The translations under genes and the position numbers were made by a program. Of a DNA stretch of 64,000 nucleotides, positions 16,020-22,629 are shown piece after piece (position 1 is the first letter of the stretch; every line of letters begins with the position of its first letter). Source of the DNA: Halosimplex salinum (lineage in GTDB: Archaea; Halobacteriota; Halobacteria; Halobacteriales; Haloarculaceae). The DNA lies in the NCBI RefSeq assembly GCF_003730195.1, contig NZ_QWGG01000001.1:310001-374000 (forward strand). The letters are read 5' to 3'. Under the pieces are notes generated by a model. The model made no database searches. It was not told where the DNA came from and saw nothing but the letters and a program-made list of their open reading frames with translations.

Positions 16020-17465
16020 ATGGAGACATTCGACTTCCTCTTCATCGGTTCCGGATCCGGACTGGACGTCGCGAACGTCGCGGCGAACCAGGGCCAGTCG
16101 GTCGCTGTCGTCGAGAGGGGACGCCTCGGCGGCACCTGTCTCAACCGCGGCTGTATCCCGTCGAAGCTACTGCTGTACCACGCGGACGTGCTGGAGACGA
16201 TCGAGCGCGCCGACGAGTTCAAGATCGACGCGACGGTCGAGGACGTCGACTTCGCCGAGATCGTCCGCGAAGTCAACGAGGAGGTCCACGGCGATTCGGA
16301 GTCGATCCGGAACGGGCTCAGTTCGTCGCCCCAGCACAGCCTGTTCGACGGCGAGGCCCGGTTCGTCGACGAACGGACCATCGAGGTGTCGGGCGGCGAA
16401 GACGACGGCGCCCGACTGCAGGCCGAGACGATCCTCGTCGCCGCCGGCTCGCGGCCCGCGATCCCCCCTATCGACGGGATCGAGTCCGTCGACTACGTGA
16501 CGAGCACGGAGGCGCTCCAGCTGGAGACGCCGCCCGACCACCTCGTGATCGTCGGTGGCGGCTACATCGCGGCCGAACTCGCCCAGTTCTTCGGGACGTT
16601 CGGAAGTGATATCACTATCGTCGGTCGGCGTCCGAATCTCCTCCCCGAGGCCGACGAGGAAGTCGCCGCGGCGTTCACCGACCGCTACAGTGACCGGTTC
16701 ACCGTCCACACCGGACACGCGGCCACGGCCGTCACCGAAGACGGGGGCGAGTTCACGGTCGAAGCGCACCCCTACGAGTACGGCGAGGCTGCGGGACTCG
16801 TCGAGGGCGCCGACACCGTCAGCGTGACCGGCGACGAACTGCTGGTCGCCGCCGGGCGCGTGTCGAACGCCGACACGCTGAACCTCGACGCGACGAGCGT
16901 CCAGACGGACGACCGCGGGTTTATCGAGACCGACGAATACCTCCGAACCGACGCGGAGGGCGTCTGGGCGCTGGGCGACATCGTCGGCGAGTACCTGCTG
17001 AAACACAGCGCCAACCACGAGGCCCAGACGGCCGCACGGAACATCTTCGGCAGCGAACTGCGGCCGGTCGACTACAGCGCGATGCCGTTCGCGGTCTTCG
17101 CCTCGCCGGAGGTCGCCGGCGTCGGCGCTCGGGAGGAGACACTCCGCGCCGAGGGCCGCGAGTACGCGACCAACACTTACCGCTACGAGGACACGGCTCG
17201 CGGCGACGCGATGAAAGCCGAGGGCTTCGTGAAGGTCATCGTCGACCTCGAGGGCGAGATACTGGGCTGTCACATCGTCGGCCCCGACGCGTCCACGGTG
17301 ATCCAGGAGGTCGTCGTCGCGATGAAGGCCGGGTCGGGGACTGTGCAGGACATCCGGGAGTCGGTCCACATCCACCCCGCGCTCCCCGAAGTCGTCCAGC
17401 GGGCGTTCTCCGGCCAGTTCAGCCGCGGCAGTGACCACGACCACGACCACGAGCACCACCATTGA
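16020..17465 (+). CDS. Dihydrolipoyl dehydrogenase-like pyridine nucleotide-disulfide oxidoreductase with His-rich tail
   Basis: A 481-aa class I disulfide oxidoreductase. FAD motif IGSGSGLDVANVAA, the redox disulfide GGTCLNRGCIPSK, NAD motif VGGGYIAAELAQFFGT, second FAD motif GVWALGDI and the C-terminal HIHPALPEVV active-site His are all present. These fit dihydrolipoyl dehydrogenase or the closely related mycothione/mercuric reductase group. The C-terminus ends in an Asp/His run (DHDHDHEHHH), a likely metal-binding tail not found in ordinary E3 subunits. No other 2-oxoacid dehydrogenase genes adjoin it, except a stand-alone E2 core at 19609. The ATG at 16020 is preferred over an upstream in-frame start. 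Confidence 0.85.
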   Translation: METFDFLFIGSGSGLDVANVAANQGQSVAVVERGRLGGTCLNRGCIPSKLLLYHADVLETIERADEFKIDATVEDVDFAEIVREVNEEVHGDSESIRNGLSSSPQHSLFDGEARFVDERTIEVSGGEDDGARLQAETILVAAGSRPAIPPIDGIESVDYVTSTEALQLETPPDHLVIVGGGYIAAELAQFFGTFGSDITIVGRRPNLLPEADEEVAAAFTDRYSDRFTVHTGHAATAVTEDGGEFTVEAHPYEYGEAAGLVEGADTVSVTGDELLVAAGRVSNADTLNLDATSVQTDDRGFIETDEYLRTDAEGVWALGDIVGEYLLKHSANHEAQTAARNIFGSELRPVDYSAMPFAVFASPEVAGVGAREETLRAEGREYATNTYRYEDTARGDAMKAEGFVKVIVDLEGEILGCHIVGPDASTVIQEVVVAMKAGSGTVQDIRESVHIHPALPEVVQRAFSGQFSRGSDHDHDHEHHH

Positions 17466-17588
17466 CCGTCAGTTCGACGACCACGACCGCCATCACCGAC
17501 CGCGACCGGGGGCGATAACACTCGTGTAACCCGGTTACCGGGGCGTTCGCGCGGCCTTTAGTGGTCGACCCTCCCAGTGACGGACGTA

Positions 17589-17945
17589 ATGACGAACGCA
17601 GCAGTCATCGTACTCGCCGGAACGGAATCGCACGCGGACACGGGTCGACTCGTCAACGGACTCGAGACGGCCAAGGAGTTCGCAGAGACCGAGGGCGACG
17701 AGGTGGAACTGATCTTCGACGGCGCCGGGACGCAGTGGATCCCCGAACTCGAAGACGAGGACAGCGACTACCACGACCTCTATCAGGCAGTCAGGGGCGA
17801 CACGTCGGTCTGTGACTTCTGTGCCGGCGCGTTCGGCGTGGAAGACGCGGTCGCCGACGCGGGCGTCGTCACCCTCGACGACCACGACGGCCACCCGAGC
17901 ATCCGCTCGCTCGTCGACGACGACTACGAGATCATCACGTTCTGA
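17589..17945 (+). CDS. DsrE-family protein
   Basis: A 118-aa DsrE/DsrF-like protein (VIVLAGTESHADTGRLVNGL at the start). The CDFCAGAFG segment (CxxC-like, about residues 75-83) contains the cysteines often used for sulfur handling. Family members act as sulfurtransferases or sulfur carriers, though many haloarchaeal versions are uncharacterised. The ATG at 17589 is chosen over an upstream GTG. It follows the disulfide oxidoreductase on the same strand with a 123-bp gap, suggesting a shared thiol or sulfur context. Confidence 0.82.
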   Translation: MTNAAVIVLAGTESHADTGRLVNGLETAKEFAETEGDEVELIFDGAGTQWIPELEDEDSDYHDLYQAVRGDTSVCDFCAGAFGVEDAVADAGVVTLDDHDGHPSIRSLVDDDYEIITF

Positions 17946-18088: not shown

Positions 18089-18931
18089 TCATATGGGCGA
18101 GTTCAACGTCCCGAAGTAGACCTGCCACGCGAGGAGGGACTTCGCGACGAGGCTGAGGACGATGTAGGTCTTCTCTCCGAAGAGGTAGTCGGTCCAGCGC
18201 CAGGTCTCGCGGTACTGCAGGACCATGTTCAGCGCGAAGAGATTGAAGAACACGAAGATGGAGACGTAGATGTAGATCACGAACTCTGGGAACTCGCTGC
18301 CCGCCGCGACCACGCTTCCGACGAACGTGACACCGATGACGACCCACGGGATCAGTCCGGCGAGCGTTCCGACGTAGTACGCCGTCCAGTCGGTCCGGTC
18401 GGTCGCCTGATTGCGCTGTTCCATCAACAGCCCGCAGAGGTTCATCACCGCGACGAGCCCGAACAGGGCGATCAGGGTTCCGAGGTCCCAGACCCCCGCG
18501 AGCATCGCGATGACGACGATCATCAGCGACGCACTCACGGAGTACTCGTACCACCGGTAGGGATTCATCCCTCGCTCGAGGTACTCGACGTACGCCCCGT
18601 AGCGAACGGTGGCGATGAGCGCGTGTGCCAGCGCGGAGAGAAAGAGAAACCCGGCGACCAGCAGCGGGAGCTGTACGTCGACCCACGGCACAGTCGCCGG
18701 TGCGAGCGTCTCGCTGGCGACGTCGAACTCGTATCGCGTGCGAGTGATCGGCCAGCGGACGTCCTCGGCCAGGACGACCATCAGGACACCCTGAACGAAG
18801 TGCAAGACGGCCATCACCGCGTTCCACCGACGGAGACGCCGATACCGCGGGGCAGTGACCGGCGGCGTCGCCGCTTCAGCCCGCCGCGGCTCCCCGGCCG
18901 CATCGGCGTTCGAGGATTCTGTCTGTGACAC
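18089..18931 (-). CDS. Heliorhodopsin
   Basis: A 280-aa seven-helix protein with the signatures of heliorhodopsin. Helix C holds RWYEYSVSASLMIVVIAML with Glu129 at the Schiff-base counterion position. The last helix holds YIVLSLVAKSLLAWQ with Lys264 as the retinal-binding lysine. Histidines at 44 (helix A) and 103 (helix B) sit where the conserved His pair lies in characterised heliorhodopsins. Heliorhodopsins are inverted relative to ordinary rhodopsins, have a long photocycle and are thought to signal or regulate partners rather than pump ions. The ~35-residue N-terminal extension is acidic and disordered. It stands alone, convergent with the DsrE gene; no retinal biosynthesis gene is in the window. 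Confidence 0.93.
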   Translation of the reverse strand: MSQTESSNADAAGEPRRAEAATPPVTAPRYRRLRRWNAVMAVLHFVQGVLMVVLAEDVRWPITRTRYEFDVASETLAPATVPWVDVQLPLLVAGFLFLSALAHALIATVRYGAYVEYLERGMNPYRWYEYSVSASLMIVVIAMLAGVWDLGTLIALFGLVAVMNLCGLLMEQRNQATDRTDWTAYYVGTLAGLIPWVVIGVTFVGSVVAAGSEFPEFVIYIYVSIFVFFNLFALNMVLQYRETWRWTDYLFGEKTYIVLSLVAKSLLAWQVYFGTLNSPI

Positions 18932-19608
18932 GTTAGTAGACGGGTCGGCTACAGGGCCCAGTTGCAGTATCCGGGATCTGTGCGAGACCGCTCTCGTCGA
19001 GCCCTCGAAGCTCTTCGGTCACTCCGTCAGGTAGATACGACACGGGAACACTTGTGCCCGGAGTTACATCAATCGTGGCTGTTGTTACGATCGTTCTAAC
19101 TGTGAACGGGCGAGTGACGCTCGACGGACGAAGAATCCCTCGGGGAGGCGGAGAACAAACTCCTCACGGACGCCGGGCCGCCCCTGCGATCGGTGACCGC
19201 GACGTGAATTTTCGCGAATCCAGGTGGAACTAACTCTGCCGTTCGGATCCTTCGCAGCGTCCTGTGGCTGTTCGGGTCCGTTCCCAGTACGACGGCCGTT
19301 GCGGGCTGGTGTTCCAGCCTCGGAGGTATCCTCTGTTCGGCCATGAGACGGATAATCTCGGTTTCGAGACGGCTGATTTCGGATTCGAGACGGCTGATAT
19401 CGGATTCGAGACGGCTGATTTCGGGAGCCGAAATCTGGCTGCAGAGGGAGCCGTCGAACGGTGGCGTCCGAACGCTGCCCGTCCGTTCACTCGGTGGTTT
19501 CCTCGAACCGCGATGGCCTGCCGGTCTCCTCCGCCAGTCACTCCGCTACGGTTCGAAACTCCCCCACCGCAGGTCAAGAAGTATGGTTCTACCGGAGTAA
19601 CCAGAGGT
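18932..19608. other. Long intergenic region between heliorhodopsin and E2-like gene
   Basis: About 680 bp with no convincing gene. It contains the upstream region of the heliorhodopsin gene (18932-19090, including an AT-richer part near 19075-19105) and a tandem 21-bp repeat at 19339-19422. Open frames across it lack conserved protein features. Confidence 0.5.
19339..19422. repeat. Four tandem 21-bp units with heptad periodicity
   Basis: Units at 19339-19359, 19360-19380, 19381-19401 and 19402-19422 share the core cgagacggctgatttc; the first is most diverged. Because 21 bp equals seven codons, the minus strand reads as near-perfect leucine-zipper heptads (EISRLES repeated, ending ETEIIRLMA). 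No start codon or supporting sequence precedes this frame, so it may be a remnant of a coiled-coil gene or a non-coding repeat. Confidence 0.75.
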
Positions 19609-20400
19609 ATGAGCAACGGTGGAGACCGGATCGAGCCGTTCTCTCCTCGCCGTCGGGGGACCGTCGATTACATGCGAACTGCGGGCAAGCGAAGCAACGT
19701 CCACGGCCTCGTAGAGGTCGACGTCACCGAGGCGAAACGACGCATCCGAACTATCGAAGAGGAGACGGGGGAGCGGCTCTCGTTCACCGCGTTTCTCACC
19801 TTCTGTCTCGCCCACGCCATCGACGACCACCCCGAGATCAACGCCTATCGAGACTGGCGGGGACGAGTACACGTCTTCGACGAGGTCGACGTGAACGTGC
19901 TCGTCGAGACGACGATCCGGGGCGAGCGAATCGGCGTCCCGCACGTCATTCGAGGAGCCAACCGACGGTCGGTACGGTCGCTTCACGACGAGATTCGGTC
20001 CGCTCAGGAGTCACCGGACCCGACGGAACTCTCCCGATGGGGACAGGTGGGGCTCCGACTCCCCGGATTCGCTCGGCGGCTGATCTGGCGGCTGCCGCAG
20101 TGGTTTCCCCGGCGGTGGAAAGACGTCGCGGGAACCGTCGCTATCACCGCTGTGGGAATGTTCGGCGGGGGCGGCGGATGGGCGATCAGCCCCACGAACT
20201 ACACGCTGCAACTGACCGTCGGCGGAATCAGCGAAAAACCGCGGCTCGTCGACGGGGAACTCGAGAGCCGGGAGTTGCTCGATCTGACGGTCACGTTCGA
20301 TCACGACGTCGTCGACGGCGCGCCCGCGACCCGGTTCGTTCGTCGACTGACGGAACTCGTCGAAGACGCCTCCGGGTTACGGACACAGGACGAACCGTGA
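19609..20400 (+). CDS. Stand-alone 2-oxoacid dehydrogenase E2-type acyltransferase core
   Basis: A 263-aa protein corresponding to only the catalytic domain of dihydrolipoamide acyltransferase. Features are the N-terminal RRGTVDYMRTAGKRSNVHGL (equivalent to the E2 core start), LSFTAFLTFCLAHAI, and the C-terminal active-site region TFDHDVVDGAPATRFV, where the catalytic His and Asp of the HxxxDG motif are retained. There is no lipoyl domain or peripheral-subunit-binding domain, so it cannot work like a normal E2 alone. Such lone cores occur in haloarchaea and their function is unknown. An E3-like dehydrogenase lies 2 kb upstream. Confidence 0.85.
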   Translation: MSNGGDRIEPFSPRRRGTVDYMRTAGKRSNVHGLVEVDVTEAKRRIRTIEEETGERLSFTAFLTFCLAHAIDDHPEINAYRDWRGRVHVFDEVDVNVLVETTIRGERIGVPHVIRGANRRSVRSLHDEIRSAQESPDPTELSRWGQVGLRLPGFARRLIWRLPQWFPRRWKDVAGTVAITAVGMFGGGGGWAISPTNYTLQLTVGGISEKPRLVDGELESRELLDLTVTFDHDVVDGAPATRFVRRLTELVEDASGLRTQDEP

Positions 20401-20448: not shown

Positions 20449-22629
20449 TCACCCACGGAAGCCGAGCAAGCGAAGGCCGTTCAGCGAGACGAGGACCGTC
20501 GACCCCTCGTGACCGACCACCGCGAGCGGTAGCGGGATCCCTCGGAGGAGGATCGTCCCGACCATGAGTGCGATCGCGCCGAAGGCGATCGCGAGATTGA
20601 CGGTGAGCGTCCGGCGGGTCTCGCGTCCGAGGCCGAGGACGTATGGGATCTTACTGAGGTCGTCACCCATCAACACCACGTCGGCAGTGTCGAGCGCGAC
20701 GTCTGTCCCCGCGCCGCCCATCGCCACGCCGAGGGTCGCTGTGGCGAGCGCCGGCGCGTCGTTGACGCCGTCGCCGACCATCGCGACGTTCTCGTATCGT
20801 TCGACCAGGGCTTCGATGGTCGCCACTTTCTCCTCCGGTAGCAGTTCCGCCTGAACTTCGTCGATACCGACCTGATCGGCGATCCGCTGTGCGACCCGCT
20901 CGTTGTCGCCCGTCAGCATGACGACGTTCCTCACGCCGAGTTCGCGGAGATCCTCGATCATCTCGGCAGCGCCCGGGCGGACCGTGTCGGTGAAGGCGAG
21001 CCACCCCAGCACGGTGACTTCGCCGCGGGCCTCTCGGGCGACCATGACGCTCGTTTTCCCCTCCGCCGCGACCGTCTGGAGCCGGTCGAGACCGGGTTCG
21101 AGGCCCTCGACCGCTGCGTCTTCGAGGACAGTCCGGAAGTAGCTCCGGTTCCCGATGTGGATGGTCGCGTCTTCGACGTCGGCCCGGACGCCTTTCCCGG
21201 CGACTGACTGAAACCGCTGTGCGTGGGGGACGTCGAGCGACCGGTCGTCCGCCGCTGTCACGGTCGCACGAGCGAGGTGATGCTCCGAGCGGGCCTGCAC
21301 CGCGGCGGCGAGGGACAGCAGCCCGTCGGAAGTCAGCGCTTCGTCTGCAGCACCGTCACGGACGAGAACGTCCGTCAACTGCGTGTCGCCCTGCGTGAGC
21401 GTTCCCGTCTTGTCGAACGCGACCGCGTCGATGTTCGCCGCCGCCTCCACGTGCTCGCCGCCCTTGAACAGGACGCCCTGTCTGCCCCCGGAGGCGATCG
21501 CCGAAAGGACCGCCGCGGGCGTCGAAATGATGACTGCACAGGGCGAGGCGGCGACCATGAGCGTCATCGCTCGGTAGAACGTACTGGTGAACTCGCTCCC
21601 GAGCGCGAGCGGAACAGCGATAGCTGCGAACGTGAGTGCGAACACGCCGACGACGTACGGTTGCTCGAGGCGGTCGATGAGCCGCTGTGTCGGCGCCTTC
21701 TCGCTCTGCGCCCGCTCGACCATGTGGATGAGACGGCTGATCGCCGACTCGTGGGCCTGCCGCGTGACTTCGATTTCGAGGCTCCCGCTCTCGTTGATCG
21801 TTCCGCCGAACACCTCGTCGCCTGACTCCTTCGGAACGGGCACGGACTCGCCGGTGAGCGAGGCCTGGTCGACCGTCCCCGTGCCGGACGCGACGACGCC
21901 GTCCAGCGGGATTTTGTCGCCGGGGCGGACGACGAACACGTCGCCGACGGCGACTTCGTCGATGGGGACGGTGACCTCCTCGCCGTCGCGTAGCACCTGC
22001 GCTTCGTCCGGCCGCATCTCGACGAGGGACTCGATCGCCCGACGCGAGCGACCGATCGCGTAGTGCTGGAGCGTATTCGACAGCGAGAACAGGAAGAGCA
22101 ACATCGCGCCTTCGAACGGCGCTCCGATCGAGAGCGCACCGAGCGCGGCGACGATCATCAACAGGTCGATGTCGACCGCACCGTGGCGGAGCGTCTCGAC
22201 CGCTCCTACGAGCCCGTACCAGCCGCCGAAGACGTACGCGACGCCGTAGCCGGTCCACAGAAGGAGCGACGGTCCGTCGAGCCACCCCGTTACGAGCCCT
22301 GTCGCCATCCCGAGCAGCGTCAGGCCGACGAACACCGCCTCCCGCTTGAGTTCCGAGCGGGTGCTCACGTCGTCCGTCGCCGGCCCGGAGTCGTCCCGGA
22401 TCGAGACGTCCCGGTCGCGGACTGCTTCTCGAATCGTTTCTTCGGCGGTGACGCTCTCGTCGTAGGTGATCCGAGCGTCTCCCGTTCGGAACGAGACGTC
22501 GACGTCGTGGACGCCCGATACACTCCGGAGGTGTCGTTCGAGCGCCCGCGCTCCCGCTTCGCCACGACCACCCCGTCGTTCGATTCGAATCGTACACGTG
22601 GATAGCGGAGATGATTCAGTAACGGCCAC
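20449..22629 (-). CDS. Heavy-metal P1B-type ATPase (P1B-4-like, SPC/HEGST motifs)
   Basis: A 726-aa metal-transporting P-type ATPase. TGES lies at about residues 259-262, the phosphorylation site DKTGT at Asp406 and GDGVNDAPA near residue 637. The transmembrane metal site is SPC at 362-364, and the last helix carries HEGSTVLVSLN near residue 707; SPC with HEG(S/G)T is the pattern of the P1B-4 group, linked to Co, Fe(II), Zn or Cd efflux. The N-terminal ~80 residues resemble a ferredoxin-like metal-binding domain but lack the CxxC pair. It precedes nothing co-directional; a UspA gene lies 130 bp upstream on the same strand. Confidence 0.92.
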   Translation of the reverse strand: MAVTESSPLSTCTIRIERRGGRGEAGARALERHLRSVSGVHDVDVSFRTGDARITYDESVTAEETIREAVRDRDVSIRDDSGPATDDVSTRSELKREAVFVGLTLLGMATGLVTGWLDGPSLLLWTGYGVAYVFGGWYGLVGAVETLRHGAVDIDLLMIVAALGALSIGAPFEGAMLLFLFSLSNTLQHYAIGRSRRAIESLVEMRPDEAQVLRDGEEVTVPIDEVAVGDVFVVRPGDKIPLDGVVASGTGTVDQASLTGESVPVPKESGDEVFGGTINESGSLEIEVTRQAHESAISRLIHMVERAQSEKAPTQRLIDRLEQPYVVGVFALTFAAIAVPLALGSEFTSTFYRAMTLMVAASPCAVIISTPAAVLSAIASGGRQGVLFKGGEHVEAAANIDAVAFDKTGTLTQGDTQLTDVLVRDGAADEALTSDGLLSLAAAVQARSEHHLARATVTAADDRSLDVPHAQRFQSVAGKGVRADVEDATIHIGNRSYFRTVLEDAAVEGLEPGLDRLQTVAAEGKTSVMVAREARGEVTVLGWLAFTDTVRPGAAEMIEDLRELGVRNVVMLTGDNERVAQRIADQVGIDEVQAELLPEEKVATIEALVERYENVAMVGDGVNDAPALATATLGVAMGGAGTDVALDTADVVLMGDDLSKIPYVLGLGRETRRTLTVNLAIAFGAIALMVGTILLRGIPLPLAVVGHEGSTVLVSLNGLRLLGFRG

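What the first reader, a model, noticed from the sequence alone, without database searches (positions are those of the whole stretch)
18089..18931. Heliorhodopsin in a haloarchaeal chromosome, isolated from retinal and rhodopsin genes
Seen: Lys264 in the last-helix block LVAKSLLAWQ, Glu129 in RWYEYS, and histidines at 44 and 103 match the diagnostic residues of heliorhodopsins rather than type-1 rhodopsins. Known: heliorhodopsins are inverted, non-pumping and lack a firm function. Here it neighbours redox and sulfur proteins (disulfide oxidoreductase, DsrE), a lone E2 core and a metal ATPase. Inference: it may act as a light sensor tied to redox control.
Basis: partly seen in the sequence, partly recalled or inferred. 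Interest (0 to 1): 0.8.

Follow-up and report, generated by a model that had tools for sequence, protein, structure and literature searches.

The report
Ordinary haloarchaeal heliorhodopsin, solitary gene
This salt-loving archaeon carries an intact, ordinary heliorhodopsin gene, predicted to make an upside-down light-sensing membrane protein; the redox genes beside it do not accompany the gene in the related genomes examined, so they are not evidence that it controls redox chemistry.

Summary
In detail: window 18089-18931 (-) is an intact heliorhodopsin (NCBIfam NF038020 363 bits, cut-off 100; nearest solved structure TaHeR), with Lys264, Glu129, His44 and His103 aligned to K241, E107, H23 and H80 of 48C12. 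It is not rare: 42 of 391 genomes of the class have one, and a Halorhabdus one has been expressed (536 nm, PMC7807009). The redox inference does not hold. Both neighbours are on the opposite strand; DsrE, the E2 core and the thioredoxin-reductase-like gene were found beside heliorhodopsin in 0 of 51 other haloarchaeal genomes; in Halosimplex carlsbadense the oxidoreductase/DsrE pair stands without it. The gene is 'isolated' only in the window: the genome has a Blh/Brp-type gene and three type-1 rhodopsins on other contigs. Heliorhodopsins of this genus fall in different clades, as expected of a horizontally exchanged gene. A redox role was already proposed in 2021 (PMC8612252). Most likely it is an ordinary photosensor acting on a partner encoded elsewhere (inferred). 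Side result: heliorhodopsin lies within 20 kb of a type-1 rhodopsin in 7 of 43 haloarchaeal genomes (1.2 expected).

The parts
18089..18931 (-). heliorhodopsin (HeR), 280 aa, GTG start; Lys264 Schiff-base lysine position, Glu129 counterion position, His44/His103; first ~26 residues modelled with low confidence
17577..17945 (+).
   Evidence: 92% identical copy in G392 on another contig than its HeR
16020..17465 (+). pyridine nucleotide-disulfide oxidoreductase (NCBIfam dihydrolipoyl dehydrogenase subfamily PRK06292); forms a pair with DsrE that H. carlsbadense keeps without HeR
19672..20400 (+). stand-alone 2-oxoacid dehydrogenase E2 catalytic core, divergent from HeR with about 0.7 kb between (start uncertain); not part of the unit
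20449..22629 (-). heavy-metal P-type ATPase; not part of the unit

Best explanation
Window 18089-18931 (-) encodes a complete member of the heliorhodopsin family that likely works as a stand-alone light sensor: it is predicted to bind retinal at Lys264 with Glu129 as counterion and, on absorbing green light, would change the shape of its cytoplasmic side and so act on a partner probably encoded elsewhere in the genome. Shown by sequence: family, intact frame, diagnostic residues, opposite-strand neighbours on both sides, a BCD (Blh/Brp-type) gene in the same genome. Predicted: the heliorhodopsin fold (AF2 model). Inferred: retinal binding, inverted topology, colour (a Halorhabdus relative absorbs at 536 nm), lack of pumping, transcription as a single gene, and a partner acting in trans. 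The gene appears to be exchanged horizontally among haloarchaea and to sit in unrelated neighbourhoods.
For: Family and residues. Model matches solved heliorhodopsins, with a two-stranded AB loop. 13 K/R in loops on the N-terminal side against 3 on the other, which fits a cytoplasmic N terminus. Opposite-strand neighbours. BCD gene and three type-1 rhodopsins, by motif BR-, sensory- and HR-like, in the genome. Third-position-biased change, suggesting purifying selection. Neighbours not conserved; no redox domain in excess. The four heliorhodopsins of the genus are rejected as one clade, p-AU 4.5e-70. A haloarchaeal heliorhodopsin was expressed and its pigment measured at 536 nm (PMC7807009, abstract start and passages). 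Sensor role argued by Bulzu et al. (PMC8612252).
Against: No partner, transducer or regulon was identified here, so 'sensor' rests on the family and not on this locus. Some heliorhodopsins do other things: a viral one transports protons (PMC9448325, abstract start). The positive-inside rule is a weak topology test. Five of 43 heliorhodopsin genomes have neither a BCD gene nor a type-1 rhodopsin, so retinal use cannot be taken for granted in every relative.
Confidence: 0.62

Rival explanations
1. The heliorhodopsin controls, or is controlled with, the adjacent redox and sulfur genes (disulfide oxidoreductase, DsrE, E2 core): a light-to-redox switch at this locus.
For: The genes do lie side by side. 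Redox genes near heliorhodopsins are reported in other phyla (PMC8612252). H. carlsbadense also has an oxidoreductase paralogue (45%) about 3 kb from its heliorhodopsin.
Against: Opposite strands on both sides; DsrE, E2 and TrxR-like gene near HeR in 0 of 51 genomes; the oxidoreductase/DsrE pair is kept without HeR in H. carlsbadense; Pyr_redox_2 in 2 of 150 near against 4 of 139 far proteins.
Confidence: 0.07
2. In haloarchaea the heliorhodopsin works together with the type-1 rhodopsin systems (sensory rhodopsin or halorhodopsin), adjusting their amount or output.
For: HeR lies within 20 kb of a type-1 rhodopsin in 7 of 43 genomes and 5 of 19 genera, expected 1.2 and 0.6, simulated p 0.0001 and 0.0002. 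Type-1 rhodopsins occur in 37 of 42 HeR+ against 243 of 349 HeR- genomes, Fisher p 0.011.
Against: Not at this locus: the three type-1 rhodopsins here are on other contigs. Five of 43 HeR+ genomes have no type-1 rhodopsin. The distance limits were chosen after seeing the data; kinship is corrected only by counting genera, and not at all in the Fisher test.
Confidence: 0.14
3. It is a light-gated or light-driven ion transporter rather than a sensor.
For: A viral heliorhodopsin, V2HeR3, is reported to transport protons (PMC9448325, abstract start).
Against: The residues that I compared are those of the prokaryotic heliorhodopsins, and no pumping had been demonstrated for heliorhodopsins by 2021 (PMC8612252 abstract). 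I did not compare with V2HeR3 itself.
Confidence: 0.06
4. It is a passing horizontally acquired gene with little or no function in this host.
For: Patchy distribution (42 of 391), genus mates in different clades, broken copies in some relatives (G041 in two pieces, G355 with an in-frame TAG).
Against: Intact frame, the functional residues examined all kept, and third-position-biased change against four relatives.
Confidence: 0.11

Closest known systems
Haloarchaeal heliorhodopsins (Halobacterium sp. TGN-42-S1 L036, Salinibaculum litoreum L037; Halorhabdus tiamatea, expressed, 536 nm, PMC7807009)
   Same: L036 and L037 81 and 85% identical over the matched region, same residues, a similar N-terminal extension in L036
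   Different: different neighbours; the H. tiamatea sequence itself was not fetched here
Thermoplasmatales archaeon heliorhodopsin TaHeR (6is6, 7u55)
   Same: about 50% identity, TM 0.80-0.81 of the query, rmsd 2.0-2.3
   Different: the window's protein has a longer N terminus and five more residues in the EF region (alignment)
48C12 heliorhodopsin (6su3, 6su4, 6uh3)
   Same: diagnostic residues aligned; rmsd 2.9-3.4
   Different: 39-40% identity in the structural alignment
Operon-type heliorhodopsins (AbHeR with glutamine synthetase, TfHeR with photolyase, OcHeR with an ABC transporter)
   Same: same protein family; contact with a partner protein is the proposed way of acting (abstract starts; PMC11109279 section 6)
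   Different: none of those partners is next to this gene, whose two neighbours are on the opposite strand

Membership tests
heliorhodopsin (type-3 rhodopsin) | match to the curated family models above cut-off | tested here: met
   PF18761 332 bits (cut-off 26.7), NF038020 363 bits (cut-off 100)
heliorhodopsin (type-3 rhodopsin) | SxxxK motif in helix 7 (as in PMC8612252 and PMC9601134) | tested here: met
   S260-LVA-K264, S and K invariant in the 27-row alignment
heliorhodopsin (type-3 rhodopsin) | ESL motif in helix 3 (PMC9601134 passage) | tested here: inconclusive
   E129 and S133 are there and invariant, but the third place, which aligns with L118 of 48C12 by my count, is Val140; TaHeR has Ile there, and it varies in the alignment, so the L does not look defining
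heliorhodopsin (type-3 rhodopsin) | two histidines of the inner cavity (H23, H80 in 48C12; role recalled) | tested here: met
   H44 and H103 align with them
heliorhodopsin (type-3 rhodopsin) | seven helices with a stranded AB loop, fold as in solved heliorhodopsins | tested here: met
   AF2 model pLDDT 84, strands 59-70 and 75-87; first 10 PDB matches are all heliorhodopsins
heliorhodopsin (type-3 rhodopsin) | inverted topology, N terminus in the cytoplasm | tested here: inconclusive
   positive-inside count 13 against 3 K/R agrees with it but is only a rule of thumb
heliorhodopsin (type-3 rhodopsin) | binds retinal as a protonated Schiff base, long photocycle, no pumping | not testable with these tools
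   needs expression; a Halorhabdus relative was expressed, purified and measured at 536 nm (PMC7807009, abstract start and passages)
type-1 microbial rhodopsin | match to PF01036 (Bac_rhodopsin) | tested here: not met
   no PF01036 hit at E <= 0.001; PF01036 in this genome finds three other genes; the type-1 structures among the 50 listed matches align at 7-16% identity with E above 0.001
operon-coupled heliorhodopsin | same-strand neighbour in one transcription unit | tested here: not met
   both neighbours on the opposite strand

The most novel reading that the evidence does not exclude
Haloarchaeal heliorhodopsins are an auxiliary light channel of the type-1 rhodopsin systems. They travel as a mobile single gene that tends to land beside halorhodopsin or sensory rhodopsin, share their retinal supply, and tune them. 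In the Halosimplex genome here the same gene would act in trans on the bacteriorhodopsin-, halorhodopsin- and sensory-rhodopsin-like set found on other contigs.
Probability: 0.1. Interest if true: 0.55.

Novelty: new member of a known kind. Interest (0 to 1): 0.2.

Why it matters
It adds one more haloarchaeal heliorhodopsin and, more usefully, warns against reading its function from the genes beside it: in the loci of this class examined here, I found no neighbour kept widely across genera. A genus whose members have type-1 rhodopsins together with, or without, heliorhodopsin would be a good place to ask what heliorhodopsin does when the other light systems are present. The 5 genomes with a heliorhodopsin but no BCD gene and no type-1 rhodopsin pose a simple question about where their retinal comes from.

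Tried and rejected
Redox unit with the neighbours: rejected on strand, on lack of conservation and on the separated locus in H. carlsbadense. Conserved heliorhodopsin partner in haloarchaea: gene families within 5 genes of HeR over 53 loci (my own gene calls and BLAST clusters); the commonest, an ABC ATPase family by its sequence, is in 8 of 53. Only genus-level units appear: one family (PNPOx-like by its look, name recalled) after HeR in 3 loci of genus g36, and one (glycosyltransferase-like, name recalled) in 5 loci of genus g6, the Halorhabdus group. Two-component enrichment near HeR, as reported for other phyla: no clear excess. Among the 25 commonest domains near HeR are PAS_3 in 3 and three other PAS families in 2 each of 150; among those far are HATPase_c, Response_reg, GAF and PAS_4 in 3 each of 139. 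Those lists show 25 of 275 and 25 of 213 families, so a small excess could be missed. Bac_rhodopsin is in 2 of the 150 near proteins. Conserved upstream element: the 769 bases upstream of the gene match nothing but this genome's own copies among the fetched loci. Clean empty site: not obtained; in H. carlsbadense similarity ends just after DsrE and what follows is different. Heliorhodopsin and BCD gene: 31 of 42 HeR+ against 212 of 349 HeR- genomes, Fisher p 0.13, no association shown.

In one search two of my type-1 rhodopsin queries (L033, L034) were translated on the wrong strand. The rhodopsins near HeR were recounted from genome coordinates, and the types read.

Rows dropped. Near/far comparison: 11 of 53 loci left out (L141, L130, L145, L154, L155, L125 and L126 as near kin, L134 and L135 as broken or fragmentary, L060 and L073 as short or divergent); 150 of 163 near and 139 of 140 far proteins used (those under 1100 aa, and for the near set the first 150). 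Tree: 56 rows given; L157 (G355, under 200 aa to its stop) was left out before, and L073 and L105 by the program, so 54 were used. Rhodopsin linkage: 99 of the 100 matches used; the one under the cut-off (G050) was left out; genome sizes are the rounded ones printed. Residue counts: 114 rows (window plus 113 of the 121 loci with a match, those matched over more than 200 residues).

Full report
WHAT IS THERE. The reading frame at 18089-18931 on the minus strand is intact (280 aa, GTG start). It matches the curated heliorhodopsin models of Pfam and NCBIfam far above their cut-offs and no other Pfam family at E <= 0.001. The six PDB sequences it hits up to E = 1 are all heliorhodopsins. His44, His103, Glu129, Ser260 and Lys264 fall on H23, H80, E107, S237 and K241 of 48C12 when the printed alignment is counted. 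They are fixed or nearly so in 114 aligned rows, some of which hold the same gene twice. An AF2 model (27-sequence alignment, pLDDT 84) has seven helices and a two-stranded AB loop. Its ten best PDB matches are heliorhodopsins (TM 0.75-0.82 of the query); the next, type-1 rhodopsins, reach 0.45-0.61 among the 50 listed. Loops on the N-terminal side hold 13 Lys/Arg against 3 on the other side, in keeping with a cytoplasmic N terminus. Against four relatives, changes are about two to four times commoner in third codon positions than in the other two.

WHERE IT IS. The window lies on contig 11 of a 5.07-Mb genome in 28 contigs. One genome of the same genus, G392, has its heliorhodopsin on a contig of 203,802 bases, the length of contig 28 of Halosimplex carlsbadense 2-9-1. 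The genome has one heliorhodopsin and one BCD (Blh/Brp-type) gene about 1.1 kb from a type-1 rhodopsin on contig 21. Two more type-1 rhodopsins lie on contigs 23 and 26. By their helix-C letters the three look bacteriorhodopsin-like, sensory-like and halorhodopsin-like (motif reading from recall). The gene is therefore isolated from these genes only within the window.

IS IT UNUSUAL. No. In a draw of 391 genomes of the class, 42 have a heliorhodopsin, in 19 of 86 genera. Within the genus 4 of 8 have one. A haloarchaeal heliorhodopsin, from Halorhabdus tiamatea, has been expressed and absorbs at 536 nm (PMC7807009, abstract start and passages).

NEIGHBOURHOOD. DsrE (17577-17945, +) is convergent and the E2 core (about 19672-20400, +) is divergent, so neither is read in the same direction as the heliorhodopsin. 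The loci hold up to 10 kb each side, some much less. DsrE, E2, the thioredoxin-reductase-like gene and TauE were found in none. The disulfide oxidoreductase was found in one (H. carlsbadense, 45% identity). The metal ATPase was found in three: 88% identical in G266, and 40% in two genomes of genus g6 (the Halorhabdus group). In H. carlsbadense the oxidoreductase/DsrE pair is kept at 79% DNA identity, the match ends just after DsrE, and the heliorhodopsin lies on another contig. Over 53 loci the most recurrent gene family within five genes of heliorhodopsin is in 8, and is of ABC ATPases. Pfam domains of 150 proteins within two genes of heliorhodopsin, against 139 proteins six or more genes away, show no excess of redox domains (Pyr_redox_2: 2 of 150 near, one of them the window's own; 4 of 139 far). 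The lists show 25 families each, so rare domains are not tested.

HISTORY. In a 54-row tree the haloarchaeal heliorhodopsins split into two main groups. G161 and G275 of the same genus fall in one; the window's gene and that of G392 fall in the other, G392 inside a 100/100 set that excludes the window's gene. Holding the four genus members together is rejected (p-AU 4.5e-70). Cautions: one very long branch, L060, was in the tree, 16 of 51 inner branches are drawn open, and the bootstrap was not fully settled. Closest by identity in the tree is the gene of G023, in another family (86% over 256 columns). Horizontal exchange is the simplest reading; old duplication with many losses is not excluded.

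HOW IT MOST LIKELY WORKS. From the family as described by others: retinal on the helix-7 lysine and inverted orientation (PMC9601134 passages; PMC8612252 abstract), slow photocycle (recalled), and in some cases an effect on a partner protein (glutamine synthetase, PMC9529153; photolyase, PMC9769723; abstract starts; ABC transporter, PMC11109279, passages and section 6). For this gene I infer the same kind of action with a partner not encoded next door. The steps not shown are retinal binding, topology, photocycle, and the partner. The oxidative-stress reading is not new: Bulzu et al. (PMC8612252; abstract, part 1 of the results, gene-context section and discussion read) argued it from glutaredoxin, catalase and histidine-kinase neighbours in other lineages. 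Words beginning Halobacteri or Haloarch do not occur in its main text.

SIDE RESULTS. Among 43 heliorhodopsin genomes, a type-1 rhodopsin lies within 20 kb of heliorhodopsin in 7 genomes (5 of 19 genera), against 1.2 (0.6) expected from genome size and number of rhodopsins; simulated p is 0.0001 and 0.0002. At limits of 5, 10, 30 and 50 kb, p by genus is 0.010, 0.00015, 0.0013 and 0.012. In the five closest loci the type-1 partners look halorhodopsin-like (G101, G043, G136) or sensory-like (G139, G023) (motif reading from recall). BCD genes are missing in 11 of 43 heliorhodopsin genomes, and in 5 of these there is no type-1 rhodopsin either (G003, G053, G071, G261, G266). A bacterium making functional rhodopsin without a known retinal gene is in print (PMC7734400, title and abstract start), so this does not show lack of retinal. 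I saw no paper on the neighbours of haloarchaeal heliorhodopsins in the listings of searches (open-licence PMC papers only; 40 of 99, 8 of 8, 3 of 3, 15 of 43 and 15 of 48 hits were listed), and I opened four of the papers.

CHECK.

VERDICT. A correct and well-argued observation of an ordinary gene; the functional inference from neighbours does not hold. Interest 0.2.

Noticed in passing
L121, L124, L129, L142, L146 (and G362, G165): Heliorhodopsin lies within 20 kb of a type-1 rhodopsin gene in 7 of 43 haloarchaeal genomes, 1.2 expected; in the five closest it looks halorhodopsin- or sensory-like.
   Followed up: partly
genomes G003, G053, G071, G261, G266: Heliorhodopsin present but neither a BCD (Blh/Brp) gene nor a type-1 rhodopsin found: source of retinal unclear.
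   Followed up: partly
window 20449-22629 and L116:10960-13137: The metal P-type ATPase near heliorhodopsin is 87% identical in DNA to one directly downstream of the heliorhodopsin in G266, of another family, while the two heliorhodopsins are only 62% identical in protein; the order differs.
   Followed up: partly
window 19345-19424: A 21/42-base tandem repeat between heliorhodopsin and E2; in one minus-strand frame it reads as a heptad-like EISRLES repeat. No match in other genomes among the fetched loci.
   Followed up: partly
G041:C1:843348-845152 (L134), G355:C11:37648-38379 (L157), G268:C9:18545-18787 (L135): Broken or partial heliorhodopsin genes: one in two pieces, one with an in-frame TAG, and one C-terminal fragment in a genome that has an intact copy on another contig.
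   Followed up: no
L120, L121, L125 and L128, L130, L141, L144, L145: Genus-level units: a PNPOx-like gene 49-79 bp after heliorhodopsin in 3 loci of genus g36, and a glycosyltransferase-like gene 53-74 bp after it in 5 loci of genus g6 (names by look, recalled).
   Followed up: no
window 19672-20400: Stand-alone E2 catalytic core; the only Pfam hit is the catalytic domain, in two stretches, and the genome has one full-length match on contig 21.
   Followed up: no
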